Origin: Megaleporinus macrocephalus
Lineage: Eukaryota > Chordata > Actinopteri > Characiformes > Anostomidae
NCBI GenBank assembly: GCA_021613375.1
Contig: CM038727.1
Location: forward strand, 1,196,832-1,260,831
Direction: 5' to 3'
Length of the DNA: 64,000 nt
The translations under genes were made by a program, and so were the position numbers. Under the pieces are notes generated by a model, which had not been told where the DNA came from, ran no database searches, and worked only from the letters and a program-made list of their open reading frames with translations. Positions 35,801-61,342 of the stretch are shown one piece after another; positions within the stretch are counted from its first letter, which is position 1, and the number at the start of each line of letters is the position of its first letter.

Positions 35801-38800
35801 GTAGTGTATTAATTAGTGTAGTAGGTGAAGTATAGAAGTGTGTTTATTAGTGTAGTAGGTGAAGTATAGAAGTGTGTTTATTAGTGTAGTAGGTGAAGTA
35901 TAGAAGTGTATTCATTAGTGTAGTAGGTGAAGTATAGAAGTGTATTCATTAGTGTAGTAGGTGAAGTATAGTAGTGTATTCATTAGTGTAGTAGGTGAAG
36001 TATAGAAGTGTATTCATTAGTGTAGTAGGTGAAGTATAGTAGTGTATTCATTAGTGTAGTAGGTGAAGTATAGTAGTGTATTCATTAGTGTAGTAGGTGA
36101 AGTATAGAAGTGTGTTTATTAGTGTAGTAGGTGAAGTATAGAAGTGTATTCATTAGTGTAGTAGGTGAAGTATAGAAGTGTATCATTAGTGTAGTAGGTG
36201 AAGTATAGTAGTGTATTCATTAGTGTAGTAGGTGAAGTATAGAAGTGTATTCATTAGTGTAGTAGGTGAAGTATAGTAGTGTATTCATTAGTGTAGTAGG
36301 TGAAGTATAGAAGTGTATCATTAGTGTAGTAGGTGAAGTATAGAAGTGTATCATTAGTGTAGTAGGTGAAGTATAGAAGTGTATTCATTAGTGTAGTAGG
36401 TGAAGTATAGAAGTGTATTCATTAGTGTAGTAGGTGAAGTATAGTAGTGTATTCATTAGTGTAGTAGGTGAAGTATAGAAGTGTATTCATTAGTGTAGTA
36501 GGTGAAGTATAGAAGTGTATTCATTAGTGTAGTAGGTGAAGTATAGAAGTGTATCATTAGTGTAGTAGGTGAAGTATAGAAGTGTATCATTAGTGTAGTA
36601 GGTGAAGTATAGAAGTGTATTCATTAGTGTAGTAGGTGAAGTATAGAAGTGTATTCATTAGTGTAGTAGGTGAAGTATAGTAGTGTATTCATTAGTGTAG
36701 TAGGTGAAGTATAGAAGTGTATTCATTAGTGTAGTAGGTGAAGTATAGAAGTGTATTCATTAGTGTAGTAGGTGAAGTATAGAAGTGTGTTCATTAGTGT
36801 AGTAGGTGAAGTATAGAAGTGTGTTCATTAGTGTAGTAGGTGAAGTATAGAAGTGTGTTTATTAGTGTAGTAGGTGAAGTATAGTAGTGTATTCATTAGT
36901 GTAGTAGGTGAAGTATAGAAGTGTATTCATTAGTGTAGTAGGTGAAGTATAGAAGTGTGTTTATTAGTGTAGCCAGTGAAGTATAGAAGTGTGTTCATTA
37001 GTGTAGTAGGTGAAGTATAGAAGTGTGTTTATTAGTGTAGCCAGTGAAGTATAGAAGTGTGTTCATTAGTGTAGTAGGTGAAGTATAGAAGTGTGTTTAT
37101 TAGTGTAGTAGGTGAAGTATAGAAGTGTGTTTATTAGTGTAGCCAGTGAAGTATAGAAGTGTGTTCATTAGTGTAGTAGGTGAAGTATAGAAGTGTGTTT
37201 ATTAGTGTAGTAGGTGAAGTATAGAAGTGTGTTTATTAGTGTAGTAGGTGAAGTATAGAAGTGTGTTTATTAGTGTAGTAGGTGAAGTATAGAAGTGTGT
37301 TTATTAGTGTAGTAGGTGAAGTATAGAAGTGTGTTTATTAGTGTAGTAGGTGAAGTATAGAAGTGTGTTTATTAGTGTAGTAGGTGAAGTATAGAAGTGT
37401 GTTCATTAGTGTAGTAGGTGAAGTATAGAAGTGTGTTTATTAGTGTAGTAGGTGAAGTATAGAAGTGTGTTTATTCGTGTAGTAGGTGAAGTATAGAAGT
37501 GTGTTTATTAGTGTAGTAGGTGAAGTATAGAAGTGTATTTATTAGTGTAGTAGGTGAAGTATAGTAGTGTATTCATTAGTGTAGTAGGTGAAGTATAGAA
37601 GTGTGTTTATTAGTGTAGTAGGTGAAGTATAGAAGTGTATTCATTAGTGTAGTAGGTGAAGTATAGAAGTGTATTCATTAGTGTAGTAGGTGAAGTATAG
37701 TAGTGTATTTATTAGTGTAGTAGGTGAAGTATAGTAGTGTATTCATTAGTGTAGTAGGTGAAGTATAGAAGTGTCTTTATTAGTGTAGTAGGTGAAGTAT
37801 AGAAGTGTATTCATTAGTGTAGTAGGTGAAGTATAGTAGTGTATTCATTAGTGTAGTAGGTGAAGTATAGAAGTGTATTCATTAGTGTAGTAGGTGAAGT
37901 ATAGAAGTGTGTTTATTAGTGTAGTAGGTGAAGTATAGTAGTGTATTAATTAGTGTAGTAGGTGAAGTATAGAAGTGTGTTTATTAGTGTAGTAGGTGAA
38001 GTATAGAAGTGTGTTTATTAGTGTAGTAGGTGAAGTATAGTAGTGTATTAATTAGTGTAGTAGGTGAAGTATAGAAGTGTGTTTATTAGTGTAGTAGGTG
38101 AAGTATAGAAGTGTATTCATTAGTGTAGTAGGTGAAGTATAGAAGTGTATTCATTAGTGTAGTAGGTGAAGTATAGTAGTGTATTCATTAGTGTAGTAGG
38201 TGAAGTATAGAAGTGTATTCATTAGTGTAGTAGGTGAAGTATAGTAGTGTATTCATTAGTGTAGTAGGTGAAGTATAGAAGTGTGTTTATTAGTGTAGTA
38301 GGTGAAGTATAGAAGTGTATTCATTAGTGTAGTAGGTGAAGTATAGAAGTGTATTCATTAGTGTAGTAGGTGAAGTATAGTAGTGTATTTATTAGTGTAG
38401 TAGGTGAAGTATAGAAGTGTATTCATTAGTGTAGTAGGTGAAGTATAGTAGTGTATTTATTAGTGTAGTAGGTGAAGTATAGTAGTGTATTTATTAGTGT
38501 AGTAGGTGAAGTATAGTAGTGTATTCATTAGTGTAGTAGGTGAAGTATAGAAGTGTGTTTATTAGTGTAGTAGGTGAAGTATAGAAGTGTGTTTATTAGT
38601 GTAGTAGGTGAAGTATAGAAGTGTATTCATTAGTGTAGTAGGTGAAGTATAGGAGTGTATTCATTAGTGTAGTAGGTGAAGTATAGAAGTGTGTTTATTA
38701 GTGTAGTAGGTGAAGTATAGAAGTGTATTCATTAGTGTAGTAGGTGAAGTATAGAAGTGTATTCATTAGTGTAGTAGGTGAAGTATAGTAGTGTATTCAT

Positions 38801-41411
38801 TAGTGTAGTAGGTGAAGTATAGAAGTGTGTTCATTAGTGTAGTAGGTGAAGTATAGAAGTGTGTTCATTAGTGTAGTAGGTGAAGTATAGAAGTGTGTTT
38901 ATTAGTGTAGTAGGTGAAGTATAGAAGTGTATTCATTAGTGTAGTAGGTGAAGTATAGAAGTGTATTCATTAGTGTAGTAGGTGAAGTATAGGAGTGTAT
39001 TCATTAGTGTAGTAGGTGAAGTATAGAAGTGTGTTTATTAGTGTAGTAGGTGAAGTATAGGAGTGTATTCATTAGTGTAGTAGGTGAAGTATAGAAGTGT
39101 GTTTATTAGTGTAGTAGGTGAAGTATAGAAGTGTATTCATTAGTGTAGTAGGTGAAGTATAGGAGTGTATTCATTAGTGTAGTAGGTGAAGTATAGAAGT
39201 GTGTTTATTAGTGTAGTAGGTGAAGTATAGAAGTGTATTCATTAGTGTAGTAGGTGAAGTATAGGAGTGTATTCATTAGTGTAGTAGGTGAAGTATAGAA
39301 GTGTGTTTATTAGTGTAGTAGGTGAAGTATAGAAGTGTATTCATTAGTGTAGTAGGTGAAGTATAGAAGTGTATTCATTAGTGTAGTAGGTGAAGTATAG
39401 GAGTGTATTCATTAGTGTAGTAGGTGAAGTATAGAAGTGTGTTTATTAGTGTAGTAGGTGAAGTATAGAAGTGTATTCATTAGTGTAGTAGGTGAAGTAT
39501 AGAAGTGTATTCATTAGTGTAGTAGGTGAAGTATAGAAGTGTATTCATTAGTGTAGTAGGTGAAGTATAGAAGTGTGTTTATTAGTGTAGTAGGTGAAGT
39601 ATAGAAGTGTATTCATTAGTGTAGTAGGTGAAGTATAGGAGTGTATTCATTAGTGTAGTAGGTGAAGTATAGAAGTGTGTTTATTAGTGTAGTAGGTGAA
39701 GTATAGAAGTGTATTCATTAGTGTAGTAGGTGAAGTATAGAAGTGTGTTTATTAGTGTAGTAGGTGAAGTATAGAAGTGTATTCATTAGTGTAGTAGGTG
39801 AAGTATAGAAGTGTGTTTATTAGTGTAGTAGGTGAAGTATAGAAGTGTATTCATTAGTGTAGTAGGTGAAGTATAGAAGTGTATTCATTAGTGTAGTAGG
39901 TGAAGTATAGTAGTGTATTTATTAGTGTAGTAGGTGAAGTATAGAAGTGTATTCATTAGTGTAGTAGGTGAAGTATAGTAGTGTATTTATTAGTGTAGTA
40001 GGTGAAGTATAGTAGTGTATTTATTAGTGTAGTAGGTGAAGTATAGTAGTGTATTCATTAGTGTAGTAGGTGAAGTATAGAAGTGTGTTTATTAGTGTAG
40101 TAGGTGAAGTATAGAAGTGTGTTTATTAGTGTAGTAGGTGAAGTATAGAAGTGTATTCATTAGTGTAGTAGGTGAAGTATAGGAGTGTATTCATTAGTGT
40201 AGTAGGTGAAGTATAGAAGTGTGTTTATTAGTGTAGTAGGTGAAGTATAGAAGTGTATTCATTAGTGTAGTAGGTGAAGTATAGAAGTGTATTCATTAGT
40301 GTAGTAGGTGAAGTATAGTAGTGTATTCATTAGTGTAGTAGGTGAAGTATAGAAGTGTGTTCATTAGTGTAGTAGGTGAAGTATAGAAGTGTGTTCATTA
40401 GTGTAGTAGGTGAAGTATAGAAGTGTGTTTATTAGTGTAGTAGGTGAAGTATAGAAGTGTATTCATTAGTGTAGTAGGTGAAGTATAGAAGTGTATTCAT
40501 TAGTGTAGTAGGTGAAGTATAGGAGTGTATTCATTAGTGTAGTAGGTGAAGTATAGAAGTGTGTTTATTAGTGTAGTAGGTGAAGTATAGGAGTGTATTC
40601 ATTAGTGTAGTAGGTGAAGTATAGAAGTGTGTTTATTAGTGTAGTAGGTGAAGTATAGAAGTGTATTCATTAGTGTAGTAGGTGAAGTATAGGAGTGTAT
40701 TCATTAGTGTAGTAGGTGAAGTATAGAAGTGTGTTTATTAGTGTAGTAGGTGAAGTATAGAAGTGTATTCATTAGTGTAGTAGGTGAAGTATAGAAGTGT
40801 ATTCATTAGTGTAGTAGGTGAAGTATAGGAGTGTATTCATTAGTGTAGTAGGTGAAGTATAGAAGTGTATCATTAGTGTAGTAGGTGAAGTATAGAAGTG
40901 TGTTTATTAGTGTAGTAGGTGAAGTATAGAAGTGTATTCATTAGTGTAGTAGGTGAAGTATAGAAGTGTATTCATTAGTGTAGTAGGTGAAGTATAGAAG
41001 TGTATCATTAGTGTAGTAGGTGAAGTATAGAAGTGTATTCATTAGTGTAGTAGGTGAAGTATAGGAGTGTATTCATTAGTGTAGTAGGTGAAGTATAGAA
41101 GTGTGTTTATTAGTGTAGTAGGTGAAGTATAGAAGTGTATTCATTAGTGTAGTAGGTGAAGTATAGAAGTGTGTTTATTAGTGTAGTAGGTGAAGTATAG
41201 AAGTGTATTCATTAGTGTAGTAGGTGAAGTATAGTAGTGTATTCATTAGTGTAGTAGGTGAAGTATAGTAGTGTATTCATTAGTGTAGTAGGTGAAGTAT
41301 AGGAGTGTATTCATTAGTGTAGTAGGTGAAGTATAGTAGTGTATTCATTAGTGTAGTAGGTGAAGTATAGTAGTGTATTCATTAGTGTAGTAGGTGAAGT
41401 ATAGAAGTGTG
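32869..41411. repeat. 34-bp satellite array (~250 copies) with segmental duplications
   Basis: The unit is TAGTGTAGTAGGTGAAGTAT + AGAAGTGTATTCAT. Variants are AGTAG or AGGAG for AGAAG, TGTTTAT or TATCAT for TATTCAT, and GCCAG for GTAGG. Rare variants recur at fixed distances and mark large internal duplications: TATTCG at 35,335 and 37,472, GTGTCTT at 35,634 and 37,771 (both 2,137 bp apart), and paired TTTATTAG blocks at 38,451 and 39,981 (1,530 bp, exactly 45 units). It fills most of larp4b intron 1. Confidence 0.97.
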
Positions 41412-44780: not shown

Positions 44781-45040
44781 ACCATTTAAACATGTAGAAG
44801 GTCAGCGTTTCTCTTTGAGCACCTAATTCCTTCGCTCTCATGAGAATGGTCTATGGTTGTTACTAAAGTTATGTGATCTTTAATCTGATCTCTGTGAATT
44901 TTACTTTATCTGTAAACTGAATTGATGCAAAAATAAAACATTAGTTTGAGCCGGTGTAAATCTATTAACCTCCTATTACTCGTACTGCTTTTCTGCTGCG
45001 GTTTAATGGGTGTTTGTTCTGTTTGGTTTCATGTTTGCAG

Positions 45041-45153
45041 CCTCCCTGGTGATCTTAGGAGCTCTTTTTAAAGAGCCCAAACCTGGACGGCTCATGACTT
45101 CAGACCAGGAAGGGAAAGACATAGCTGAGCCGCAGGTGCAGCAGTCACAGGAA
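45041..45153 (+). CDS. larp4b: larp4b exon with canonical start codon
   Basis: The acceptor ATGTTTGCAG ends at 45,040 and the ATG is at 45,094. Twenty codons end in CAG GAA at the donor GTGAGG (45,154), phase 0. The start is chosen because MTSDQ is the family N-terminus. The frame also runs open upstream to another ATG at 45,031, but that one overlaps the acceptor, so it is not used. Confidence 0.85.
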
Positions 45154-48100
45154 GTGAGGAAAAAAGAAATCCCCCTTTTGGTAAAGTGTAAACTTTTCAC
45201 TGTCAGCTTTTTTTTTACAGTGTGTATTGTGGATTTTTGCCTTCTCTGTCACTCAAATGCAGCCAATTCCAGTAAATATCCAGATCGTTTAAATTACAAG
45301 CCAGTACAAGTTCACAAGTGTTTCCAAACCCACGTTGTTGAGGTATGTCTACACTGAGCTAATCCCATCCATACCACTGAAACGCCACTCGCAAGATTTG
45401 GGAGTTTGTGTTTGAGTGACAGGGCCATGTGAGTCAGTACAAATTTAAATGTGCTATTTTGGGTGTAGGGAGGGGGTAGGCAGCCATATTGCACCTCCCC
45501 CTCGCTCTCTCTCCCCCTCTTTCTCTCTCCCCCTCTCTCTCGGTGAGAGTGTAACTTCTCGAGGTTTGTTTGCTGGAGTACTGAAATAAGTTTTATGTCG
45601 TAGTTTAATATGGGGTGTTGCTTTAGTAAAGAGTTGAATCCTAATTTGGTGACCGAAAGAACGAGCCTTCTTCAGACGCCAGTCGCTGAAAGCTGCTCCG
45701 GTAAAGACGTGAAGCAGTGCGCTCGCTCCGTGGCCGAGCTGGCCCGAGAGAAGCTTCCTGACTATGGAGAGACGAACAGAGCCCTGGACACCAGAAGCAC
45801 TTCTTCCTCCGCAGACCTGTCCGCAAGCCTCGGTTCCATTGACAAGAGAAGCAGCAGCGTTCAGGACGGGACGGTGCTTTGGAACGAACCCGCCCCTCGT
45901 CTTTGTAAAGTTCTGGAACGGAACGGGAACGCTAAGGAAGTTTCTAAAGGAGGCGGCGACGGTCTCGCCGTTACACCGAGTGCCGAGAGAGCCGTGCTGC
46001 ACTCGGTAAAGAAGAAAATCGCAGAAAATGCAGAGAAACGTGCAAACTGGTTTCGTGAAGTTGGATCTCATTGTGGGGATTTGACTGGGAAAAGCTGGAA
46101 AAGCCGTAGCGAGGACACGGATATCGCAGCCACGCTTGTGCCGGGTAGTCATTACATCAGAGGAGCTCGCTCTTCAGGCAGCGTGGGCTCAGAGGAGCAC
46201 GCACAGGTGCAAAGCAGTGGTAGGGAGAAGGCTGACGACAGAAGGTTGGAGGCAACCACGCTTCATGGGAAGGTCTCTGATGTGCTGGAGAATGATTGCG
46301 ATTTCTCAGACCTCCACTTCAAAAAAAGGACCCAGAGCTTCTACAGCATTTGCTCAATCGATGCCGACGATCTGGAGGGTGAGTGCGAATCCGTGACGCA
46401 ACCTGCGCCAGTCGCTCAGGCTAACGTATTAGCTGCCGCTGAAGAGCCGCCGCCTAATAACTCCTCGCTCCTGAATAATGCATGCGGGACGGCTCCCTCA
46501 GAACCTTCAAATGGGACCAAAGCTTTTGAAAAGCAGATGATCAAAGTACTACAAGATGACGATGAAATGTGTTCTGGAAGTCCTCCAGCGAGAACTTGCT
46601 CTGTAAACATGGGTGGCGCTCTTCCAGACCTCCTTGGGACGTTTAACGCAGGGTCTGAAAAGCATGTTCCTGTTCCCTTTGAGGAGAAAATGATCAAACA
46701 GGCTGGCAGCACATGTGAACGACCTGCCTCAGTCGAGACTCGTGATGAAACCACCCCAGACTTGCTGGAAAGAAACGGAGAGTTATGCTCAGGTGGATGT
46801 ACGGAGGGGCAGCACGGTGAGCGCTTGGTTAATGCTGTCGTCTTGGCTTACGTGGCTGAGCTGCCTGTTGATGCAGCGGCACATGACGCATGTCCTTCTG
46901 AAGCAGAAGAGATCGTTCAATTAAAGGTCGAGTCCACAAGCAGACTAGATGCTGAGGAGAGGGATTTAAGATGCCTCATCTCTAGTGAAGCTGTGAAAGT
47001 AAACTTGGAATCACAGATGAAGGTTGGGCTTTCTGTTCTAGATGCAGCATATCATGATTCTGGGGTTTGTGCTTTGCTAACAGAACCCATTCCTTCACAT
47101 AGCAACGCAGGAGAAGCTCCTTCAGCTGGAAAAGCTACTAGCCAGTGTTTATCCAGTACTGAGAAAATCCGTAAAGAAGCCGAGCTTGATTCATTAAACC
47201 TTAAACCCTCTGATATACCTGAGACCTTCAGGGATGTGCCATCACCTTTCATCACTTCCGCAGTGGAAAATGAAAGTGAGCTTCAAAGCTTCATGACAGA
47301 AGACAACTCTCAGGAAGCTAACCGACTAAATCTGAACTCTGAAGCAGGCAGCCTGTCAAGCTCGTCTGATTTTGAGAAGAAAGAAACAGCCACAGAAGTG
47401 GAGCTCGTGTCTGATGAGCTTAACACATTCCAGAACTTGGGGTTAGTCCCACCTAATATCTGTAGGGGGAATACTGATATTCCACTGACAGGTGAGGTAG
47501 TGGACTGTTCTGAACAGAGTGTAATTTCCCTGCTGGGTTATGATGATGAAGAGAAAAGAGAAGCTGATCTCGGCGTGGAAGACTTCACCTCCACCGCTCC
47601 TCCCACTGACCTGTCAAAACCTGATTCCATAGAGGAAGAGCATGAAGAAACGCTGGAAAATTCAGATTCAGACATTCGTGAACCGTTTCTGCCACCAGCT
47701 GTCACACATATAAGCTCTTCTGATCGTTTGCTTGGTGATGGTGGTTCAGTGGACTCTCTGCAAAGCCCAGTAAACTGTGTGCAGGCAGAGCAGGACCTGC
47801 CCAGCTCTGCTCCTGGGTCTGCAGATGTTTCAGGTAACGCTTGTGCTGCATCTAATGCTGACTGCTCTGAAGGTAACGACCACCTGAGGCGCTCTCCTGT
47901 TCGAGAGTTTTGTAGTAACGAGAGTCTAAAACAGCTAGCAGGTGGTGTTGAACATCACATGGAGTCCACGTTACCTGTCTCCAACCAGGAATGTGTTACC
48001 TCCATAGAGAAAGTAGATTTTGGCTTGAAAGGGAATGAGAAGATCCCAGCTTTCTCAGAGTGCCTCCATGAGGATGAAGAGAAAGTAGGGGTTGATGATT

Positions 48101-51100
48101 CGTTGAGCATCAAAACAGGGCATCAAAGTGGACTACAGCAGGACCTGCCATGTTTTTTTAACTTTGCGGATAAGCAAGAGATCTTCTTCTGTTTGGGAGA
48201 CGGTCAGGAAACTACGGACTCTGACAGCCAGAGCAGTCCGTCAAGCTCGCCTTCTCGGGACACGGAGGCTTCCGACAGTGCCACATTGTCTAAAAACAGT
48301 ATGCTGAGTGAGAGTGCTCGCATTCCCGCCGCTCCTCTCTTGGGACAAGCTGCCAGTGATATGCAAAGCACTTCAGTTTGGGCCAATCAAACTGAGCCAG
48401 CAGAATCAAGGCCTGTCGGTCCACCAGGCATGAATGTGATTGACACTGGAGGGGAAGGGACAGTGGTTGACTACAGCATTCCTCTCGTGGGTACCATAGG
48501 GCCACTCTTTGAAATCGGAGAACCATCGTATGCCTTACAAGGCCATGGCTGCGCTGGTGTGTCTATGGAGAGCTTTGCAACAAGCAGGCTTCAAGGATAC
48601 CAGCTTGAATCGTGCAACCCTTCCACTTGTGGCTTTGGAGATTCTGAAGCTGCTGATGAACCCACATGCCCTAACAAAGCTATTCCGCTACCTGTCGAGC
48701 CCGGCCAGGTGGACGTTCACGCCAGCACTCCCTCGTATGAGATCCATTTCCGTAACGCTGTTGTCCCTGCGCAGGTCGCAAAATCTGAAACCAAGATGAG
48801 CGAGTCCGAAGGAGACCAAGGTGTGCTAAACATGGTTTCGGAGCTTCTCGGAAAGTCTGAGGTGAGTGAGGATGGAGAGTCTGATCATTACCTCTCGCTG
48901 TGGCCTGAAAAGCCGAATACTCAAATTCAAGGGTGTGTCTTGGAGTCAGCGTGGCCTCCTCGTCTCACTGGGGTGGACGTGATGGATGCACAGCAGGACA
49001 GTAAAGATGATCTAGGTGACGACTTGGAGGATGTCCAGGACTTCATGACCACCTACCCATACAACCTGTTAGAGTCTGACGATGGTTCCTGTATATGGGA
49101 CTGGCAAAACGCTTACTATGAACTTGTAAGTGTTCCATGACGGCGTCTGTCCTGCTGTACGTTACACATCTATTGGTCGGTTTGGTCTGTAGAACTATGT
49201 GTGGTCACCTTGTTGTCCTCCAGGCTGCTCATGCATTTAATGTTTGTTTTCTTCTTTTATCTTCTTCTGTCTTTTATTCTAACTTAGGAAACCACCAAGG
49301 TTTCTGATCTCAATCCCAATGCGAAGGCATGGGGCAGTTATATGACTGACCAGGAAGCCTCGGGACTGGCCTACACACACTCTCTCCAGTCATGGGTAAA
49401 AGATGCCAGTGACTCAACAAATACCGTCTCAGGAGGTAAATCTTCAGAAGTATTGTGTATAAAATGTTTGTGATGTTCACCAGTCTGTCATTCACTTCAC
49501 ATGTGATTCATCCACAAATCAGTGACCTCACCAAAACACCACACATAATTAATTATTATATATAATTAATAGGAAATAGTTACTGACATCTTTGTTTTTT
49601 TATTTTATTTAAGTGTTAAGGCATGCACTCGTTAAACATTATGCACATCTCCTTCCATCTCCACTCACTGTCCACTGTATCAGCTCCACTGACCATACAG
49701 GACCTCCACTCACTGTCCACTGTATCAGCTCCACTGACCATACAGGACCTCCACTCACTGTCCACTGTATCAGCTCCACTGACCATACAGGACCTCCACT
49801 CACTGACCACTGTATCAGCTCCACTGACCATACAGGACCTCCACTCACTGACCACTGTATCAGCTCCACTGACCATACAGGACCTCCACTCACTGTCCAC
49901 TGTATCAGCTCCACTGACCATACAGGACCTCCACTCACTGTCCACTGTATCAGCTCCACTGACCATACAGGAGCTCCACTTACAGACTGTAGTTCATCTG
50001 ATTCTCTGTATACTTTATTACTCTGTTCTTTAATGATCAGGACCCCCACAGGACCACCAGTTAGTGTGTGTTGTGCTGGTGTGAATGGATCAGACTGTAG
50101 GACATTGTGTCCACTCTCTGTCCACTCTATTAGACACTCCTACTACTTGCTGGTCCACCTTGTAGATGTAAAGTCAGAGACAGTAGCTCATCTGCTGCTG
50201 CACAGTTTGTGTTCCTCTAGTTCTTCATCAGTGGACACAGGACGCCGCCCACAGGACACTGCTGTCTGAATAGTTGTGCCTGATCTACTCACACCAGCAC
50301 AACACACACTAACACACTACAGTGCTGCAGCGCTGAGAATGATCCACCTCCCTAATAGTATCTGCTCTGTGGTGGTCCTGTGGGGGTCCTGATCATTAAA
50401 GAACAGAGTAATAAAGTATACAGAGAATCAGATGAACTACAGTCTAAGTGTAGAACTACAGGGTGATCAGTGGATCTGATAAAGTAGCCGGTACGTGTAG
50501 GTACATGTTGATGATATTGCTAACTCGTGAATGAGTGGTTGGTTATTCAGGCTCTCACTACATAGGTGCAATGTGGTGTAACAGCATTTCAGCTAAATTA
50601 CAATATTAGTTTGCTCGCAGCGTCTGCATGAATAACAAAGCAGATTTATGTTATTATATGTTGCGCTGCTTGTTTTATTGCTTGCTGTTTACTCGCTTCG
50701 GGGAAATCATTCACAGCTTCATTATACACTTTTCTTTTTAATCTTCTAAAAATATGATGTTGCTGAAAGTCTAAATAGTGATATTTGTTCCTCCAGGTTA
50801 TGTTACCAGCAATGACACAGGGAACTGGAATGAAGAACAGGTATCCGTCTCAGTAGACCTGCCTTCAGCAGAACCGGTGGACATGGGAAGCACAGTCAAT
50901 CAGTTGCCCTCTGGGTTGCAGCAGGAGACCAGCATGAAAGGTGCCGTGATTATTGGGATTATTTCAGTCTGTTTGATCTTGAGCTGGAGGGTTGTGAAGT
51001 GAAAGTCCTGTATTTTGTCTCTCCTGTGCAGAAGGTGGTAGTTCAGACTCCTCCAGGCAGCTTGAAGATCTTCGAGAACAGCTAAAGGCTACACTAGAGT

Positions 51101-54100
51101 TTTGCCTCTCCCGGTAACTTCTTTACACTTTCATACTCGGTGCTGCTTACGCTGGCTGTGGTGTCTGTGGTAGGCTTGCTAGTGGAGCTGACCTTGAATT
51201 CAATGTTTTTTTTATTTTACTCAGAATCTGGTTATGAAATGAAATGCGTCTCTTGGGAGTTATTTGTTATGCGTTCTAGTTTCTAGAACAGCTGTAGCCA
51301 CCTCTGAATTTTAGCAGCCTTTAAATCCAAAACTTTATAGAAAATCTTATGACTGGTCAGAATATGACTGTCCTCCCATCTGCTGAACGCTGTTGGAGGA
51401 CTGACCATCAGGGCCTCCTCCCCACCCATCACCAGCCAGCTCTCCTGTCCATCTGTGTTACTGCTACACCCTCAGTTACATCACTGTACACCATTCAGAT
51501 GTACCAGCACTGAGATAAGATGGGACTGTTTCAGCTCACGCCCACTTTACATAAAGACTCAGTCAGAGACCGCCTCAGTCAGAGACCGCCTCAGCCAGAG
51601 ACTGCCTCTACCTGTGCAGCTTCTAAAGCTTTGCTATCCAGATTTCAAACAGAGACTCTTTTCTTTGGTGTTTAGTTTATTAAACTGTAAATACTGTTTG
51701 ACCAGAGGAGGACGGGTCTCCCTGTGTGAGTCTGGTTCCTCCCAGGGTTTCTTCCTCCAGTCTGAGGGAGGTGTTCTCTTGCCTCTGTCTGGCTCACTGG
51801 AGGATGTATGTTGTAACTGTCTGTTTTCAGGACTGTTTACAACATTGTTGTAAAAAGTGCTACACAAATAAACTTGACTTGAATATCGGCAGCGTGTTCA
51901 TGGCGGAGTTGCGGGAGGAGAGCAGTAGGCATAAACGCAGATTACTGGATACGTGGGCGGCCTTTTCACAATCTGTAGCGTTGTTGTAAGCACAAAAGAA
52001 CATATTGAAGGGTGCTGGACTTCAGCCTCTGTAATGCCACGTATCGTGACCCCTCTCTTTCTTGTTGTGATGCCAGGGAGAATCTCGCCAACGATATGTA
52101 CCTCATCTCTCAAATGGACAGTGACCAGTACGTGCCAATCGTGACGGTGGCAAATCTCGATCAGATCAAGAAGCTGAGCACAGACGTGGATCTAATTGCA
52201 GATATATTGAAGAGTAAGTAATCAGTGGTCATTGTTAACCAAGGCCTCAGTTCATGCGCTCACGCTGCTCACGCTGCTCACGCTGGCGGTTGATGATGTT
52301 TTTGAAACGTTTCAGCGCTCCCTCTCGTACAAGTGGACAAATGTGGTGAGAAAGTACGACCCAACCAGAACCGATGCATCGTTATCCTCCGAGAGGTTCC
52401 CGAGGCCACTCCCGTTGAGGTGAATGTTCTACCTGTTGGATTTCTCTTGTGTAAAATAATGAGGACTCTCGTTGAACAGAATAAAACTCGATTGCTTTTC
52501 TTCTTTTCTTGTTTTAGGAAGTCGAGACTCTGTTCAAGAGTGAAAAATTGCCCAAATTTGTTAATTGTGAGTTTGCCTATAACGATAACTGGTTCATCAC
52601 CTTTCAATCGGAGGCGGATGCACAACTGGTACAGTTTTACTTCCTGTTATATGACAGCCTTGAGTCTTTTTGTCTGGTCTTATAAGGGCAGCTAATTATT
52701 TATTGTCTACGTTCTAGGCGTATCAGTATCTCCGGGAGGAGGTGAAGACGTTTCAAGGAAAGCCGATAAAGGTAATCATGGTTACATGTCATCATATTAG
52801 TGAGTGGTTTTGTTTTCTTCTCTAAAAGCTTTTACACACCCATTTATTTATTTATTTATTTATTTATTTTTGGATTCCAGGCGAGGATAAAAGCCAAGGC
52901 CATTGCTGTCAACACTTTCGTGCCAAAGAATGGGTACCGGCCCGTAGATATGTCCACAAACGTCCAGCAGCGATATACCTCTTACTATATCCCACCTGTG
53001 TATGGACCCCAGCAGCAGTTCCCCCCAATCTACAGACTGGTAACCCCTCAAGGCTGGTCAACAGCACAGAGCTACTTGGATCCCTTAGTGAGTACTGCAT
53101 GGTCTCTTAGGGTGGTTTCACACTTTTCATGAATACTTAAGTCCGCACACAGGACCAGCACTGAGCCTGTTTTGCGTCCGAGCTGTGGATTGATTGTGCT
53201 GTTCAGTACATCACTTTTCTTTGCCTTTGTTTGCAAAATTGTAGCTGCTAGCTTGGTTAGTTAATGAATTTGATTATTTTACTTGTATACAAGCACAACA
53301 GTCCTTTACCTGCTTGAAGCTAACTCAAAGAGCACACAATTACACAACTCCACATACATCAGCGTACAGAAGACCACTCCAGAGTTTGCTGGAAGTAAAT
53401 CCCAGACCACTGGTTTGAAAGATTGGTTCTTAGGATTACTTCTGTTCTTGCAGAGTGAGTGGTTCTGGGTCCAAGAAATAATAGATGTGAACCAATCAAA
53501 TAGTAGCCTTAAAATAACCCATAACCTCTGAAACTGTGTTTGTGTACTATGTGTTATTGAATTAGGCTAACAACAGAAGTAACACAAACCTTTTTCTTAT
53601 TTGTCAGGTTACTCCGTTCCCAAACCCTGGATTCATCAATGGCTTTGCTGGATCTCCAACTTTTAAATCAGCCACAGCACCTTTGACTGTCAGACATTAC
53701 CAACCAAGGAACAGGTATGCTGCTGTTTGTTGAGTGTGTGAGAGTGTACATCTCTCAGCTGTGCCTCCAGTGTTTCACAGTAAGGTTTTCATCCTGATAG
53801 GAATCACAGTAAAGGCCATGTTCGACCCACGGCACCGAGCGCCGAGCGTGGAACAGCTTTGTTGGAGAATCCTGGCACTTTCACAAACCTGCCCTCAGAG
53901 CGTATCCCCAACGGGACCCGTGCGCTACATACCCATCAGATGAGCAGCCGGCCTCGTCTGCCCAGCGCTCCGAGCTATCCTCGCAGGGACCAGGTCGGGA
54001 GTGGACGAATGGAGATGAATGGGGCAGATTACTCACCTGTCATTGGCAGAGGAAGGTAATGCATCAAAGTTGGCATTGTTGGAATTAATGAATAGGTTAT

Positions 54101-57100: not shown

Positions 57101-60100
57101 GAGGTCCTTTTGTCTCCTGTCAGCCCCTAAATAAGGATGCAGTTACCAGCCGTGTGACTTCAGGAATCCCCAAAGAATCAGTGCCGACTGTTATTGCTCC
57201 CACTGCTCAGCCTCCGGTGGAGCAGCAAAACCCACCATCCCCAGTTCACAAGAGATGGTATGTTTATGTCGCTACTGAATGAATAAATAAATAAATAAAT
57301 GACTGCCATTACATTTTTCTTTCTTTCAGTATTTAAATTGTTCTCTAATGTTCTACATTGATGGTATGTGTGTCTTTGGTCACCCTGATGTGGTTCTACA
57401 CCCATTTACGCTCTATGATTTAAACACTATTTTCTCCTTTTGTTGAGCTCATGAATATTAAGATGAACTCTGCTCTGATTGGTTAGTTTACAGTGGAGAT
57501 AACACAGAAGAAACAGATGAAATAAAATTAAGCTCAGTGTAAATAAACTCTGCTCACATAATATTTAGTTAGCTATACTAGTTATTTGGAGCTGCTAGTA
57601 GTAACGTTACCTATACTAAGTACTCACTTTTATCTGGACATCAAACACAAAGTAGACCTTAAACGGTGCTGTGGTTCCATTCTGGCGTCTGTAGGAGCTG
57701 CAGTGTTTAAGGTGGAACATTAGATGAAGAATGTGGAGAAGAGGAACTTCAGGCTGGTTTAAAGATCAACATGGAGCTCTGACAGTTGGGTTGTTTGTTG
57801 GGAAGTAATGAAAAGTGGCGACGTTCCCTTCACAGCCTGGAACGCTGGATTTCTCCACCACCGTTCTGGTTGCTGGTTGGGGTTGTGGTGGTGTGTAAAT
57901 GTTCTGGTTACTGGTTGGGGTTGTGGTGGTTGTGTGTAAATGTTGGGGGTGTAAATATTAACCAGTCTGTTACGGAACAGTGTAGGATTTGGAGCTCGAC
58001 CCGTTTATCCTTTGTAAAAGCAGGATTTGTATCTGAAGAAAAGAGTTTGAGGTTCAGGGTATGTACAGTTCTGAGTACTGAACTCTCACTATTACGCTAT
58101 ATAACAGCGTTATTACAGGTTTACAGTTCTGAGTACTGAACTCTCACTATTACGCTATATAACAGCGTTATTACAGGTTTACAGTTCTGAGTACTGAACT
58201 CTCACTATTACGCTATATAACAGCGTTATTACAGGTTTACAGTTCTGAGTACTGAACTCTCACTATTACGCTATATAACAGCGTTATTACAGGTTTACAG
58301 TTCTGAGTACTGAACTCTCACTATTACACTATATAACAGTGTTATTACAGGTTTACAGTTCTGAGTACTGAACTCTCACTATTACGCTATATAACAGCGT
58401 TATTACAGGTTTACAGTTCTGAGTACTGAACTCTCACTATTACGCTATATAACAGCGTTATTACAGGTTTACAGTTCTGAGTACTGAACTCTCACTATTA
58501 CGCTATATAACAGCGTTATTACAGGTATACAGTTCTGAGTACTGAACTCTCACTATTACGCTATATAACAGCGTTATTACAGGTTTACAGTTCTGAGTAC
58601 TGAACTCTCACTATTACACTATATAACAGCGTTATTACAGGTTTACAGTTCTGAGTACTGAACTCTCACTATTACACTATATAACAGTGTTATTACAGGT
58701 TTACAGTTCTGAGTACTGAACTCTCACTATTACACTATATAACAGCGTTATTACAGGTGTACAGTTCTGAGTACTGAACTCTCACTATTACACTATATAA
58801 CAGCGTTATTACAGGTGTACAGTTCTGAGTACTGAACTCTCACTATTACACTATATAACAGCGTTATTACAGGTGTACAGTTCTGAGTACTGAACTCTCA
58901 CTATTACACTATATAACAGCGTTATTACAGGTGTACAGTTCTGAGTACTGAACTCTCACTATTACACTATATAACAGCGTTATTACAGGTGTACAATTCT
59001 GAGTACTGAACTCTCACTATTACACTATATAACAGCGTTATTACAGGTTTACAGTTCTGAGTACTGAACTCTCACTATTACACTATATAACAGCGTTATT
59101 ACAGGTGTACAGTTCTGAGTACTGAACTCTCAGTATCAAACAGAAATCAGAGTGAACTAGTGATCGTACTGTGTGAAAATCAGCAGTATAGATTACAGCC
59201 AATGAGTGCACCATTATATCTTCCCTCCTGTCCACCTACAGCACTGCTGAGCAGTCGGGCTTGTCTGTTAATTGTCTGTTAGAACGCGGTGGTCGGCCGG
59301 CCTGTGACGTGAACAGCAGTTTAAAAATGTGTATTTTTCTTGTATCTCCGAGGAAGCAGGCGTTTTAAAAATGGGTCGGTGTCTGAGATTCAGATTCAGT
59401 CAGCAGGTGGGAATTCCTCACCACTCAAATTGGGGGAGGTAATTGGGCCAAAATTGTCACAACAGTAATGATTTAGGTTTTATGTGCGTCAGAGGTTTTG
59501 ACTGTTTCTCTTATTTGTCAGCTGTGAGTCACTGATTGAAAACACTGCAAATACAAATCAGGTTCCAGTTTATGAAACTTTTGCTTAAATCATTATTCCG
59601 TATGTTTTAACCTGGCGGTGAGTGTATCCTCATAGTGGATGTGTTTTATGTTTTTATTGCTAAGTGATGTGTACGCTGTCTACAACTGTATCATTGGGTT
59701 CAGTACCGAATCAGCTTCTCAGTGAAATCAGTTACTGAATGCAAATAGTAAATGTTACAAACAAAAGCAGAGGTCACCCGAGCTCCATCCCAACTGGCTG
59801 ATCAGCTGTCCCTCCTGTCTGAGCTGTTTATGCTCATCAGCCTGAATGAGTGGAGTTATTCCAGTAGAGCACCAGCATCTCTCACTCTGACAGAGAACCT
59901 AAGAGATGGTTCAAACTGTACCTCACTACCTTCTAAACTAGAACTTCTATGAAACGTTCAACCTGAGCTTTTTTTATTGTATTCTGTCATAAAATCTCAT
60001 TAACTCTGTCCTTCTCTCTTTATCCAGGGTCGTTGCTTCCTTTGATCTAGGAAGTTTTTTCTGATTTGCTTTAGGGGGGCTTGTACCTGGATACCATTTC

Positions 60101-61342
60101 ATATTTTTTTTTCTCTACTATTTCATAAACTGCTTTTCTGTAAAGATGCTTTAAAACAACACTGGTTGTAAAACCTGCCATTGAAATAAATGTTAGTTAA
60201 TTGATCGATTGACTTTAGTGTGCAGTGCCATACATTTTTAATGTTTTTGTTGAAACACAAACAATTTTAACAAATTCTGAACCCATAAGTGGTAACCTGA
60301 TATCGCTACTGTGTACATATGAATTGTTTTTGGTTTTTTTTGTTCTCGGTTTCATACTGATGCATATTATTTTAGCAGTACAGAGCCACACCACACTGGC
60401 AGGTGTCTGCAGCCTCTACATTGTCAAACATTTTAAAATCTTATACAAGTTGGGCTGGACATGGGGCCATATTCCAGTTCAGGATGTCTCAGTTAGTCTA
60501 AAAATAGTAAGAAATAAGTAAAATGGTAGAATGCTTTGTGGGATGACCCATTGTTGTGCTAACAAACGCTGACACTGTCAGAAACCAGTTTTAAAACATG
60601 GTTTGGGAAGTTAAATATCTGCTTTAGTTGGCTCTACTGAATGTTGTACATTATCTTCTGATTGGCTTCCAAACAATAAGTAAAATAAAATAAAAGTGAG
60701 TGATTAATATGTAATATTTGCACAAGTTGGTTCATGTCTATGTTAATGCTTATGTTATGATTCTCTGTTTAAAACAGCAGTTCAGTGAAGATACAAGAGG
60801 AAAAATCCAAGGAGGTGACTGCACCTGCAGAGAGACCTTCAGTTCCGCATGCTGCTAAAAGCCCCCCGGTTCAGCTTAACAATCCAATTACGGTGAGTCT
60901 TTAATGCTGCCTCATACTGCCCCGTACTGCAGGGCCAAGGAGCGTGAAGCATCAGTTAAAAGTGATGTAGTCAGGAACTCATACGTCAGCCTCTGTGTTT
61001 TCTTGCCGCAGCTGATGGACTAGTTGGGTCATCAGTAAAGTCGGTTCCAATTGGAAAGCGTGCATTTTAAAAAAAATAAAATTTGTGATTTCCCAGGAGC
61101 CCCGAAAGCCAAGCTATGCAGAGATCTGCCAGAGGATAAGAGAGGCGCCGACGCAGCAACCTCCAGTTGAGCCCAAGCCGGCCAGTTCTCCTGCAGAAGA
61201 CGCCAACTCCCTTGACTCTGTAGAGCACAGATGCAGAGAAACGCGGCTTCCCTCGGCCAAAGCCGCGCCGCCTCGTGTCCGAGACGCCTGGAAGCCTCAT
61301 CAGGGTGCCGGGGACATGTCGGCTTCCTCGTCTCAGTCCTGA
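45094..61342 (+). CDS. larp4b: La-related protein 4B (LARP4B), canonical isoform, about 710 residues
   Basis: LARP4B is a cytoplasmic RNA-binding protein that binds poly(A)-binding protein and AU-rich mRNAs and supports mRNA stability and translation. Exons join in frame at 45,094-45,153, 49,288-49,435, 50,797-50,940, 51,032-51,113, 52,077-52,213, 52,316-52,419, 52,518-52,628, 52,718-52,771, 52,881-53,087, 53,608-53,714, 53,801-54,055, 55,280-55,325, 55,407-55,589, 57,124-57,257, 60,778-60,892 and 61,097-61,342. The start [14 protein letters not shown] matches LARP4B (MTSDQDAKVVAEPQ). The variant PAM2w motif LNPNAKAWG is at residues 28-36. The La motif ([19 protein letters not shown] onward) covers about 140-205 and the RRM about 208-285 ([22 protein letters not shown]). 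[10 protein letters not shown] lies near the C-terminus. Usual length is about 738 in human, so this one is slightly short, with a divergent tail. It is B rather than LARP4 because of MTSDQ and [20 protein letters not shown]. Confidence 0.95.
45440..45609 (+). promoter_or_regulatory. Upstream region of the giant exon: possible own promoter or 3' splice site
   Basis: A CT-rich tract (about 45,496-45,541) is followed by several AG dinucleotides (for example CTCGAG at about 45,561 and GTCGTAG at 45,603). Such a tract could serve as the polypyrimidine tract of an acceptor or as part of a promoter's initiator region. Sequence alone does not decide. Confidence 0.35.
45610..49125 (+). CDS. Giant alternative N-terminal exon of larp4b: MGCC-type, acidic, unknown function
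   Basis: One uninterrupted frame of 1172 codons ends at a consensus donor (TATGAACTT|GTAAGT) in phase 0, the phase needed by the PAM2 exon at 49,288. If unspliced it stops four codons later (TGA at 49,138). The ATG at 45,610 has A at -3 and G at +4 and an in-frame TAG nine bases upstream, so it is a real start. Residues 1-7, MGCCFSK, fit N-myristoylation at Gly2 (Ser6, Lys7) with palmitoylatable Cys3/Cys4. ERTSLL at 16-21 fits the dileucine sorting signal. The rest is Ser/Glu/Asp-rich and looks disordered, with islands [17 protein letters not shown] (about 240-256), FEKQMIK/FEEKMIK (about 305 and 357) and an aromatic end [10 protein letters not shown] (1163-1172). I recognise no domain. It could be a larp4b isoform of about 1862 residues or a separate protein sharing the locus. 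Confidence 0.75.
49288..49435 (+). CDS. larp4b: larp4b PAM2w exon
   Basis: The acceptor TCTAACTTAG ends at 49,287 and the donor is GGAG|GTAAAT. It encodes [19 protein letters not shown] and onward. The Trp in place of the usual Phe of PAM2 is characteristic of LARP4/4B (PAM2w), which binds the MLLE domain of poly(A)-binding protein. Phase 0 at its start lets it follow either the short or the giant first coding exon. Confidence 0.93.
49657..49980. repeat. 45-bp minisatellite (7 copies)
   Basis: The unit is CCACTCACTGTCCACTGTAT + CAGCTCCACTGACCATACAGGACCT. Because 45 is a multiple of three, several frames stay open on both strands; none is a gene. The unit corresponds to the outer left arm of the hairpin element that follows directly. 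Confidence 0.95.
49950..50495. mobile_element. Large hairpin (fold-back/MITE) element
   Basis: Long inverted arms: TACAGACTGTAGTTCATCTG..CTTTAATGATCAGGACCCCC at about 49,981-50,050 pairs with GGGGGTCCTGATCATTAAAG..CAGATGAACTACAGTCTA at about 50,384-50,446. GTTAGTGTGTGTTGTGCTGG (about 50,061-50,080) pairs with CCAGCACAACACACACTAAC (about 50,294-50,313). I recognise this as a common non-autonomous fish DNA element. It lies in the intron after the PAM2 exon. Confidence 0.85.
50797..50940 (+). CDS. larp4b: larp4b exon (linker, acidic)
   Basis: The acceptor TTCCTCCAG ends at 50,796 and the donor AAAG|GTGCCG follows. It completes a Gly codon and encodes a weakly conserved linker between PAM2 and the La motif ([16 protein letters not shown]). 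Frame and phase fit both neighbours. The donor is not strong. Confidence 0.82.
51032..51113 (+). CDS. larp4b: larp4b exon (start of La motif)
   Basis: The acceptor TCCTGTGCAG precedes 51,032 and the donor CCCG|GTAACT follows. It encodes [17 protein letters not shown], the first helix of the La motif, very close to LARP4[12 protein letters not shown]. Confidence 0.93.
51549..51608. repeat. 18-bp tandem repeat (3 copies)
   Basis: Three units of CAGTCAGAGACCGCCT in an intron, with minor changes. Confidence 0.85.
51660..51885. mobile_element. Dispersed fish repeat, inverted copy
   Basis: It contains GAGGAGGACGGGTCTCCCTG, TTCCTCCCAGGGTTTCTTCC and the end AAGTGCTACACAAATAAACTTGACTTG. It is the reverse complement relative of the element at 23.5-24.0 kb. 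Non-coding. Confidence 0.75.
52077..52213 (+). CDS. larp4b: larp4b exon (La motif core)
   Basis: The acceptor GTGATGCCAG ends at 52,076 and the donor AAGA|GTAAGTAA follows. It encodes [20 protein letters not shown] and [20 protein letters not shown], nearly identical to the La motif of vertebrate LARP4B. Confidence 0.96.
52316..52419 (+). CDS. larp4b: larp4b exon (La/RRM junction)
   Basis: The acceptor CGTTTCAG ends at 52,315. It encodes [20 protein letters not shown] and [14 protein letters not shown], the end of the La motif and the first strand of the RRM. The donor GAG|GTGAAT follows. Confidence 0.95.
52518..52628 (+). CDS. larp4b: larp4b exon (RRM middle)
   Basis: The acceptor TTGTTTTAG ends at 52,517 and the donor CTG|GTACAG follows. 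It encodes [20 protein letters not shown] and [16 protein letters not shown], the central strands of the RRM. The last codon gives Leu where mammals have Gln (CTG for CAG). Confidence 0.95.
52718..52771 (+). CDS. larp4b: larp4b exon (RRM end)
   Basis: Fifty-four bases in phase 0 encoding [18 protein letters not shown], identical in pattern to the family. The acceptor is GTTCTAG and the donor is AAG|GTAATC. Confidence 0.96.
52881..53087 (+). CDS. larp4b: larp4b exon (post-RRM conserved block)
   Basis: The acceptor TGGATTCCAG ends at 52,880 and the donor TTA|GTGAGT follows. It encodes [20 protein letters not shown] followed by a Tyr/Pro/Gln-rich stretch ([11 protein letters not shown]) and [12 protein letters not shown], typical of LARP4B. 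Confidence 0.95.
53608..53714 (+). CDS. larp4b: larp4b exon
   Basis: The acceptor TATTTGTCAG ends at 53,607 and the donor AACAG|GTATGC follows. It encodes [20 protein letters not shown], matching LARP4B VTPFPNTGFINGF. Confidence 0.94.
53801..54055 (+). CDS. larp4b: larp4b exon (basic, disordered)
   Basis: The acceptor ATCCTGATAG ends at 53,800 and the donor GGAAG|GTAATG follows. It encodes [15 protein letters not shown] and a basic Arg/Pro/Ser-rich region ending SPVIGRGR, in line with mammalian SAERGPGLLESPSIF and LGRGR. Confidence 0.92.
55280..55325 (+). CDS. larp4b: larp4b exon (KKR basic)
   Basis: The acceptor TTTTTTTAAG ends at 55,279 after a CT tract and the donor ACA|GTGAGT follows. 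It encodes [15 protein letters not shown], aligned with NSFGYRKKREEKFT of LARP4B. Confidence 0.92.
55407..55589 (+). CDS. larp4b: larp4b exon (FPPLPG block)
   Basis: The acceptor GTTTCACAG ends at 55,406 and the donor AAG|GTTACC follows. It encodes [20 protein letters not shown], a hallmark of LARP4/4B, then [19 protein letters not shown]. Confidence 0.95.
57124..57257 (+). CDS. larp4b: larp4b exon (weakly conserved)
   Basis: A CT-rich tract and CTCCTGTCAG precede 57,124; the donor AGATG|GTATGT follows. It encodes [20 protein letters not shown] and a Pro-rich tail. An alternative acceptor 33 bp upstream (TGCCACAG, ending at 57,090) is also in frame and would add 11 residues. The exon is supported mainly by phase and weak similarity. 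Confidence 0.75.
57866..57950. repeat. ~40-bp tandem duplication
   Basis: Two copies of TGGTTGGGGTTGTGGTGGT.. TGTGTAAATGTT in an intron. Confidence 0.8.
58063..59131. repeat. 58-bp minisatellite (~18 copies)
   Basis: The unit is TACAGTTCTGAGTACTGAAC + TCTCACTATTACGCTATATA + ACAGCGTTATTACAGGTT. Copies are nearly identical; the first half mostly has GCTATATAACAGCG and the second half ACTATATAACAGCG, so the array spread directionally. Each unit carries TTATTACAGGT, an acceptor-like string. It lies in a larp4b intron. Confidence 0.96.
59875..60195. mobile_element. Dispersed fish repeat fragment
   Basis: The right end reads TTTTCTGTAAAGATGCTTTA..TTGTAAAACCTGCCATTGAAATAAATG, a tail related to the repeats at 51.7 and 23.5 kb. 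Non-coding. Confidence 0.55.
60778..60892 (+). CDS. larp4b: larp4b exon with tandem NAGNAG acceptor
   Basis: The acceptor is AAAACAGCAG: cutting after the first CAG (60,777) gives C-S-S-V, after the second gives C-S-V, both in frame. It encodes [20 protein letters not shown] and then [10 protein letters not shown]. The donor is ACG|GTGAGT. Confidence 0.85.
61097..61342 (+). CDS. larp4b: larp4b last coding exon
   Basis: The acceptor GATTTCCCAG ends at 61,096. It encodes [19 protein letters not shown], matching the LARP4B C-terminal block [11 protein letters not shown], and ends SASSSQS at TGA 61,340-61,342. The mammalian tail (ending in a KSPQ-type basic stretch) is not recognisable, so the C-terminus is divergent or shortened. 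Confidence 0.95.
   Translation, partial: EPRKPSYAEICQRIREAPTQQPPVEPKPASSPAEDANSLDSVEHRCRETRLPSAKAAPPRVRDAWKPHQGAGDMSASSSQS

What the first reader, a model, noticed from the sequence alone, without database searches (positions are those of the whole stretch)
45610..49125. A 1172-codon open exon that can splice in frame into LARP4B, making a giant isoform
Seen: one frame of 3,516 bases without a stop, an in-frame TAG just upstream of a strong-context ATG, and a consensus donor GTAAGT exactly in phase 0 with the PAM2 exon at 49,288, which the short canonical exon (45,094-45,153) also joins in phase 0. Two alternative N-termini therefore feed the same LARP4B body, giving about 710 or 1862 residues. 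A random frame this long in DNA of this composition is very unlikely, and a matching donor at its end makes chance weaker still. Known: LARP4-family genes use alternative first exons before the PAM2 exon. Inference: the giant exon has its own start site or an acceptor in the CT-rich tract at 45.5 kb. I recognise no known family in it.
Basis: partly seen in the sequence, partly recalled or inferred. Interest (0 to 1): 0.88.

Follow-up and report, generated by a model that had tools for sequence, protein, structure and literature searches.

The report
Membrane-anchored giant LARP4B isoform
A fish gene for an RNA-binding protein (LARP4B) carries a second, giant starting exon, shared by gar and many other ray-finned fish, whose first residues look like a lipid-anchor signal, so it may tie messenger RNAs to cell membranes.

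Summary
In detail: 45,610-49,125 is one open frame of 1172 codons with a GTAAGT donor in phase 0 with the PAM2w exon of LARP4B. It is a real, conserved coding exon. Relatives occur in many ray-finned fish including zebrafish and gar, and automated gene models already join it to LARP4B. The paper searches I ran showed no description of it.

The exon begins MGCCFSK, the first seven residues of the MGCCFSKT tag used to put reporters on membranes, followed by an acidic dileucine, ExxxLL. MGCCF is present in 100 of 101 proteins collected and all 100 have an acidic dileucine, while most of the exon drifts and is predicted disordered.

Best explanation: an alternative, lipid-anchored LARP4B isoform in which a roughly 1,150-residue disordered tether holds a PABP/poly(A)-binding body at membranes, perhaps endolysosomes. 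The exon and its junction are well supported, lipidation is a strong inference, and the organelle and the mRNA-tethering role are hypotheses. Some records have residues before MGCC, which would spoil the anchor. No transcript data were available; tetrapods are unresolved.

The parts
45094..45153 (+). Canonical first coding exon of LARP4[21 protein letters not shown], phase 0 to the PAM2w exon
   Evidence: Direct reading; 94% identity to Prochilodus P0002 residues 13-60 over 45,037-45,180
45154..45180 (+). In-frame extension of that exon to a second donor (TTTTG|GTAAAG), used in the Prochilodus gene model to reach the giant exon
   Evidence: tblastn of P0002: 45,037-45,180, then 45,604 onward; sequence
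45438..45539 (+). Upstream DNA conserved with a catfish-like sequence; in the window the matching frame has a stop and is not the frame of the giant ATG. Candidate promoter or 5' UTR (inference); its second half is CT-rich and low in complexity
   Evidence: tblastn, filter off, of the upstream translation of P0007, E 1.3e-7; P0010 at 45,438-45,473, E 0.015; P0053 only E 2.1
45604..45609 (+). Six bases (TTTAAT) between the candidate acceptor ...GTCGTAG| and the giant ATG
   Evidence: junction used by model P0002
45610..49125 (+). Giant alternative first coding exon, 1172 codons
45610..45675 (+). Residues 1-22, [22 protein letters not shown]: likely N-myristoylation (G2), palmitoylation (C3, C4) and acidic dileucine (E16, L20, L21) signals
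   Evidence: MGCCF in 100 of 101 proteins; S6 in 74 of 74 distinct N-termini with MGCCF, [DE]xxxL[LIM] in 100 of 100; invariant in all 23 rows of A1
45982..46059 (+). Residues 125-150, basic helix [26 protein letters not shown]; motif not evident in the bonefish, eel and elephantfish rows, nor aligned in gar
   Evidence: AlphaFold2 helix, 10-residue block pLDDT 91 and 83 at 131-150; A1; gar comparison
46327..46374 (+). Residues 240-255, [16 protein letters not shown] short conserved motif, in gar RTQTFYNICPIDIADL
48706..48750 (+). Residues 1033-1047, [15 protein letters not shown] motif, in gar QIDLYASTPSYEMHP
48820..48852 (+). Residues 1071-1081, [11 protein letters not shown], short predicted helix
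49051..49125 (+). Residues 1148-1172, [25 protein letters not shown], conserved C-terminal block ending at the donor
49288..49437 (+). Shared exon with the PAM2w motif LNPNAKAW
   Evidence: 82% identity to Prochilodus; motif LNxxAxx[F/W] in PMC7356810
50796..51114 (+). Next LARP4B coding exons (about 50,796-50,939 and 51,022-51,114, edges approximate)
   Evidence: tblastn of P0002 and P0003
52054..61339 (+). Remaining LARP4B body, La motif to the last coding exon, in several exons (edges approximate)
   Evidence: tblastn of P0002 and P0003

Best explanation
LARP4B of ray-finned fish has two N-termini. The short one (MTSDQ) gives the usual protein. The giant exon gives a second isoform whose own start codon exposes MGCC: G2 is myristoylated, C3 and C4 are palmitoylated, and the nearby ERTSLL signal may steer the anchored protein into the endocytic/lysosomal route. 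The next roughly 1,150 residues are a mostly disordered tether with a few short conserved motifs. The tether ends directly before the PAM2w motif and La module, so the isoform would hold polyadenylated mRNPs at a membrane. Shown here: the exon, its conservation to gar, the conserved donor position and the joined gene models. Strong inference: lipid anchoring. Weaker inference: own promoter, endolysosomal address, mRNA tethering. The confidence given is for a lipid-anchored alternative isoform, not for the organelle or the tethering role.
For: 1) Coding and old: 86 relatives at E<=0.001 among 7999 scored candidates; zebrafish and gar added. 2) Joined to LARP4B: 52 of 101 proteins run from the W-x-W block into an LNP.. 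PAM2w motif. Of 41 not joined by my pattern, 38 read V-S or V-R within nine residues after W-x-W, where the window's exon ends, as a GTRAG-type donor would in phase 0; seven of these 38 are near-identical copies. One contig ORF, P0084, reads from MGCC through PAM2w without a stop, with about ten extra residues at the junction. 3) Lipid anchor: MGCCF in 100 of 101, and M1-K7, E16, L20, L21 invariant in the 23 rows of A1, which I picked from 87 proteins. Residues 1-20 average 0.85 conservation, while 47 of 59 twenty-residue blocks lie at 0.15-0.41. MGCCFSKT is a working membrane tag: modified MARCKS on GCaMP6s (PMC10709653), 'MyrPalm' on Tomato (PMC7704634). 4) Address: acidic dileucine in 100 of 100, 97 at position 16; LAMTOR1 needs C3/C4 to anchor Ragulator to lysosomes (PMC6454084) and is myristoylated at G2 (PMC10940682). 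5) Tether: AlphaFold2 pLDDT under 50 for 1096 of 1172 residues. 6) Body: La domain above cut-off in the zebrafish and elephantfish models; LARP4B PAM2w binds the PABPC1 MLLE domain (PMC7356810). 7) Upstream DNA conserved with a catfish-like sequence.
Against: No transcript, CAGE or protein data; the joined proteins are nearly all automated models. In 18 of 101 proteins residues precede MGCC in frame: five gene models (P0002, P0053, P0061, P0064, P0088) and 13 unnamed ORFs with an upstream in-frame start, among them a similar ...HSSLVFYSHSRPEKM stretch in several percomorph-like ORFs; translation from there would remove the lipid signal. P0019 skips the start altogether. Counting these made me lower the odds slightly. 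MGCCFSKT alone is used for the plasma membrane, so the endolysosomal address rests on a short motif. The sequences are related fish proteins, not independent events, and 10 of the 101 were found with the N-terminus itself. The gar record ends at the start of the La motif and has no La domain hit. Nothing outside ray-finned fish was found, though that search was limited.
Confidence: 0.68

Rival explanations
1. The giant exon is an internal cassette, or translation starts upstream of MGCC: transcripts start at the MTSDQ exon and splice into the acceptor at 45,603 (or use an upstream start), giving a giant protein in which MGCC is internal and not lipidated.
For: Five gene models have residues before MGCC and 13 unnamed ORFs have an upstream in-frame start; donor 2 at 45,180 and acceptor TAG at 45,603 are in phase and used by the Prochilodus model.
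Against: MGCCF kept in 100 of 101 proteins makes little sense if internal; the zebrafish, gar, Astyanax and Ictalurus records begin at MGCC; in the window the giant ATG is preceded by an in-frame TAG.
Confidence: 0.18
2. Same lipid-anchored isoform, but its address is the plasma membrane and its role is a cortical or signalling scaffold rather than an endolysosomal mRNA tether. (This overlaps with the best explanation, which leaves the organelle open.)
For: MGCCFSKT alone is used to localise a reporter to the plasma membrane (PMC10709653).
Against: Acidic dileucine in 100 of 100 sequences at nearly fixed distance; LAMTOR1 has the same G2-C3-C4 arrangement and is lysosomal.
Confidence: 0.35
3. 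The giant exon is a separate single-exon gene nested in a LARP4B intron, ending at the stop 49,138-49,140.
For: The frame ends in TGA four codons after 49,125, so 1176 residues from the ATG would be a complete protein.
Against: Residues after the donor differ between fish (VSVP, VSLR, VSTL, VSIVSKHW) while the V-S/V-R position is kept in 38 of 41 unjoined sequences, and 52 of 101 proteins are joined.
Confidence: 0.03
4. Chance open frame.
For: None beyond the absence of a Pfam hit.
Against: Conserved across ray-finned fish; far longer than any run in 100 simulations.
Confidence: 0.01

Closest known systems
LARP4 / LARP4B (La-related proteins with PAM2w)
   Same: Same gene, same body: PAM2w LNPNAKAW and La module follow the giant exon.
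   Different: The human form described has PAM2w at residues 56-63 (PMC7356810, passages); here about 1,180 residues and a likely lipid anchor precede it.
LAMTOR1 / p18, the lysosomal anchor of Ragulator
   Same: Works alike at the N-terminus: G2, C3, C4 lipid anchor (PMC6454084 and PMC10940682, passages). A dileucine shortly after is recalled, from no call.
   Different: No homology seen: the exon matches no Pfam or PDB sequence. LAMTOR1 being small and not RNA-binding is recalled.
MGCCFSKT MyrPalm tag (modified MARCKS)
   Same: First seven residues identical.
   Different: An engineered tag; here the sequence is natural and followed by ERTSLL.
Upa1 of Ustilago maydis, endosomal mRNA transport
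   Same: Works alike in the proposed model: one polypeptide with a membrane-binding part (FYVE) and a PAM2 motif for the poly(A)-binding protein (PMC9249222, passages).
   Different: No sequence relation tested; Upa1 uses FYVE/PI3P and links Rrm4, while here anchor, PAM2w and La module would be in one protein.
Annexin A11, tether of RNA granules to lysosomes
   Same: The proposed outcome is alike: RNA on lysosomes (PMC6890474, search listing and abstract start).
   Different: A different protein family, by name; not compared here.

Membership tests
LARP4B (La-related protein 4B) | La motif / La module in the body | tested here: met
   Window exons align to LARP4B models through the La motif; PF05383 at 57.5 bits, cut-off 37.1, in zebrafish P0100. 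Gar P0101, a record ending at the La motif, has no hit
LARP4B (La-related protein 4B) | PAM2w motif LNxxAxxW | tested here: met
   LNPNAKAW in 49,288-49,437; definition in PMC7356810
LARP4B (La-related protein 4B) | Giant exon spliced to the body in mRNA | tested here: inconclusive
   52 of 101 proteins joined, including one continuous contig ORF; no RNA data
Dual-acylated (myristoyl plus palmitoyl) N-terminus proteins | M-G at the start with adjacent cysteines and permissive residues | tested here: met
   MGCCFSK identical to the first 7 residues of a working tag; MGCCF in 100 of 101, of which 18 have residues before it in the record
Dual-acylated (myristoyl plus palmitoyl) N-terminus proteins | Lipids shown on the protein | not testable with these tools
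   Needs metabolic labelling or mass spectrometry
LAMTOR1-like lysosomal anchors (works-like claim only) | Acidic dileucine after the acylation site (feature of LAMTOR1 recalled) | tested here: met
   [DE]xxxL[LIM] in 100 of 100
LAMTOR1-like lysosomal anchors (works-like claim only) | Sequence homology to LAMTOR1 | tested here: not met
   No Pfam family at E<=1 and no PDB chain at E<=1 for the exon alone; LAMTOR1 itself was not compared directly
Endosomal or lysosomal mRNA tethers (works-like claim only) | Membrane location together with bound mRNA | not testable with these tools
   Needs imaging and RNA proximity assays

The most novel reading that the evidence does not exclude
Ray-finned fish make a lipid-anchored form of an RNA-binding protein that carries, in one polypeptide, an endolysosomal anchor, a 1,150-residue disordered tether and a PABP/poly(A)-binding body: a built-in vertebrate counterpart of the fungal Upa1 system for placing mRNAs on endolysosomes, kept for as long as gars and teleosts have been apart.
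Probability: 0.38. Interest if true: 0.85.

Novelty: new variant of a known kind. Interest (0 to 1): 0.62.

Why it matters
LARP4 and LARP4B are described mainly as proteins that bind poly(A) and PABP and stabilise mRNAs (abstracts). A conserved lipid-anchored isoform would mean that the same body can be placed on membranes by choice of first exon, and would give a genetic handle in zebrafish on how vertebrate cells put mRNAs on endolysosomes or the plasma membrane. It also suggests that some fish proteins deposited as 'uncharacterized' or 'mucin-like' are LARP4B-type proteins.

Tried and rejected
Chance ORF: rejected. Known domain in the exon: none in Pfam at E<=1, none in PDB by sequence at E<=1. 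The single PDB match of profile A1 (6i9b, LARP4) is explained by the four full-length LARP4B rows in that alignment, not by the exon. AlphaFold2 on A1 gave mean pLDDT 39.1, too low for a fold search, so none was run. A homologue outside ray-finned fish: none among the named hits; but searches scored only the roughly 8,000 candidates sharing most words, and one search had only 43 candidates and did not return the percomorph proteins found earlier, so absence in tetrapods is not shown. The paper search for MGCCFSK gave three papers, of which I opened two, both on an engineered tag. Searches for a described long or lipidated LARP4B showed nothing on it in the rows listed, which for searches are only part of the papers found; I judged them by titles and abstract starts, and by passages of three papers. 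dN/dS could not be done: no related DNA was available. The helix 125-150 is barely above the 95th percentile of hydrophobic moment in the same protein (0.42 against 0.41), so I claim nothing for it.
Full report
What was checked. In 100 simulated 64-kb sequences built from a second-order Markov model of the exon, the longest stop-free run was 377 codons; the window has 1178. The rest of LARP4B lies downstream, to 61,339, by tblastn with a Prochilodus and an Astyanax protein.

It is a real exon. A protein search found 86 relatives at E<=0.001 among 7999 scored candidates. The best, from Prochilodus magdalenae, matches 100% of the exon at 63% identity and continues into LARP4B. A profile search with 23 aligned sequences also gave 86 at E<=0.1 among 7995 candidates. 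A search with only the first 60 residues listed 31 of 43 candidates at E<=10 and added zebrafish 'la-related protein 4B isoform X1' (P0100, E 7e-9) and spotted gar 'la-related protein 4B isoform X2' (P0101, E 0.012). Every hit with an organism name in these three calls is a ray-finned fish, from elephantfish, bonefish and eel to percomorphs and gar; many hits are unnamed. Gar and window also align at E 1e-14 in the C-terminal block and 1e-10 at the N-terminus in a direct comparison. The exon is therefore probably at least as old as the split of gar and teleosts. Automated annotation already has it; several other fish records call it 'uncharacterized' or 'mucin-like'.

It is joined to LARP4B. 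Of the 101 proteins examined (the window's own included), 52 run from the exon's C-terminal W-x-W block into an LNP.. PAM2w motif. Of 41 that do not by my pattern, 38 continue with V-S or V-R within nine residues, where the window's exon ends, which is what a GTRAG-type donor reads as in phase 0. Seven of the 38 are near-identical copies of one sequence. The three others are my own query cut at the donor (P0001), a partial record ending at the exon end (P0092), and the Osmerus model, spliced differently (P0033). Eight lacked the block as searched; of these P0030 is visibly joined and P0098 ends ELVSTL. One unnamed contig ORF, P0084, reads from MGCC through PAM2w in one piece with about ten extra residues at the junction; it may be a cDNA or a genome that lost the intron, and I could not tell which. 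The gar record contains the exon, the junction and PAM2w but ends at the start of the La motif, so it has no La domain hit.

What is conserved. Most of the exon drifts: in A1, 47 of 59 twenty-residue blocks have a mean majority-residue fraction of 0.15-0.41, against 0.85 for residues 1-20, 0.80 for 241-260 and 0.54-0.66 for 1021-1100 and 1141-1172. Gar and window align significantly in three colinear blocks only: 1-96, 237-313 and 1027-1172. Between Prochilodus and Astyanax the LARP4B body is 88% identical, while the window's giant exon is about 45% identical to Astyanax. AlphaFold2 on A1 puts 1096 of 1172 residues below pLDDT 50, with one confident helix at 125-150 and others at 31-44 and 1071-1079. 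This is the anatomy of a disordered tether with short linear motifs.

The N-terminus. MGCCF occurs in 100 of the 101 proteins; the exception, P0019, is a gene model that splices past it. Ten of the 101 were found with the N-terminal query itself. Among the 100 (74 distinct 30-residue N-termini, selected by MGCCF), S6 is kept in 74 of 74 and K7 in 73 of 74. An acidic dileucine, taken as [DE]xxxL[LIM], follows in 100 of 100, at position 16 in 97. In the 23 rows of A1, M1 to K7, E16, L20 and L21 are invariant. These sequences are related, so the counts are not independent events. A text search for MGCCFSK found three papers. I read the passages in two: MGCCFSKT is the first eight residues of a modified MARCKS sequence used to localise GCaMP6s to the plasma membrane (PMC10709653), and a 'MyrPalm' tag directing myristoylation and palmitoylation of Tomato (PMC7704634). 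LAMTOR1 needs C3 and C4 to anchor Ragulator to lysosomes, is palmitoylated there and predicted to be myristoylated at G2 (PMC6454084, passages); a review reports that G2 myristoylation and its effect on lysosomal location (PMC10940682, passages). That LAMTOR1 has a dileucine close behind is recalled, not read here.

Own start or acceptor. The window has a candidate acceptor, GTCGTAG|TTTAATATG, and a second donor of the MTSDQ exon at 45,180; the Prochilodus model joins the two. In 18 of the 101 proteins residues precede MGCC: five gene models (P0002, P0053, P0061, P0064, P0088) and 13 unnamed ORFs that simply start at an upstream in-frame codon, several sharing an ...HSSLVFYSHSRPEKM stretch. 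If such starts are used, the lipid signal is lost; counting them made me lower the odds slightly. On the other side, the acylation signal needs a free N-terminus, the zebrafish, gar, Astyanax and Ictalurus records start at MGCC, and in the window a TAG stands in frame nine bases before the ATG. The upstream translation of P0007, a catfish-like sequence, matches the window at 45,438-45,539 (E 1.3e-7, filter off, the second half CT-rich); P0010 matches the same core (E 0.015) and P0053 only weakly (E 2.1). In the window that frame holds a stop and is not the frame of the ATG. This is conserved non-coding DNA directly upstream, as expected of a promoter or 5' UTR. That step is inference.

How it most likely works. 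The giant isoform would be lipidated at its start, sorted by ExxxLL, and would hold the PAM2w/La body, which binds PABPC1 through PAM2w (PMC7356810, passages), at the end of a long disordered arm. A fungal system built on a similar principle exists: Upa1 binds endosomes through FYVE and the poly(A)-binding protein through PAM2 (PMC9249222, passages). Vertebrate RNA on lysosomes is known through annexin A11 (PMC6890474, listing and abstract start). LARP4 has been linked to mRNA control at mitochondria (PMC12852828, a review passage). My estimates: exon real and joined to LARP4B, 0.97; lipid-anchored, 0.77 (0.8 before the upstream starts were counted); endolysosomal, 0.45; endolysosomal mRNA tether, 0.38.

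What is not known. No transcript or protein evidence could be examined. Tetrapods, sharks and basal ray-finned fish are unresolved, because candidate selection in the searches was narrow. The search of the window's own genome did not complete. The paper searches showed no paper on a giant or lipidated LARP4B in the rows listed; the library lacks most subscription journals, and several of those lists were cut.

Noticed in passing
32816-41410: An 8.6-kb minisatellite of a 34-base unit, about 253 copies at 95% match, ends about 3.7 kb before the canonical LARP4B exon.
   Followed up: no
24047-28190: A 4.1-kb minisatellite with 51-base and 153-base periods.
   Followed up: no
28849-29959: A 1.1-kb array with a 21-base unit, open in several frames on both strands, giving probably spurious ORFs of 376-424 codons.
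   Followed up: no
49659-49980: A 45-base tandem repeat, 7.2 copies at 98%, lies in the intron just after the PAM2w exon.
   Followed up: no
58064-59136: A 58-base tandem repeat, 18.5 copies at 98%, lies between the LARP4B coding matches at 57,121-57,255 and 60,782-60,892.
   Followed up: no
45610-45675: The N-terminus contains LNPN, and in the eel Synaphobranchus LNPNA, which resembles the start of a PAM2 motif but lacks the F/W; probably coincidence.
   Followed up: partly
proteins P0031, P0039, P0071 (percomorph models): Their La region is 61-64% identical to the Prochilodus protein, against 92% in zebrafish P0100; the percomorph giant-exon gene may be a separate, faster duplicate.
   Followed up: partly
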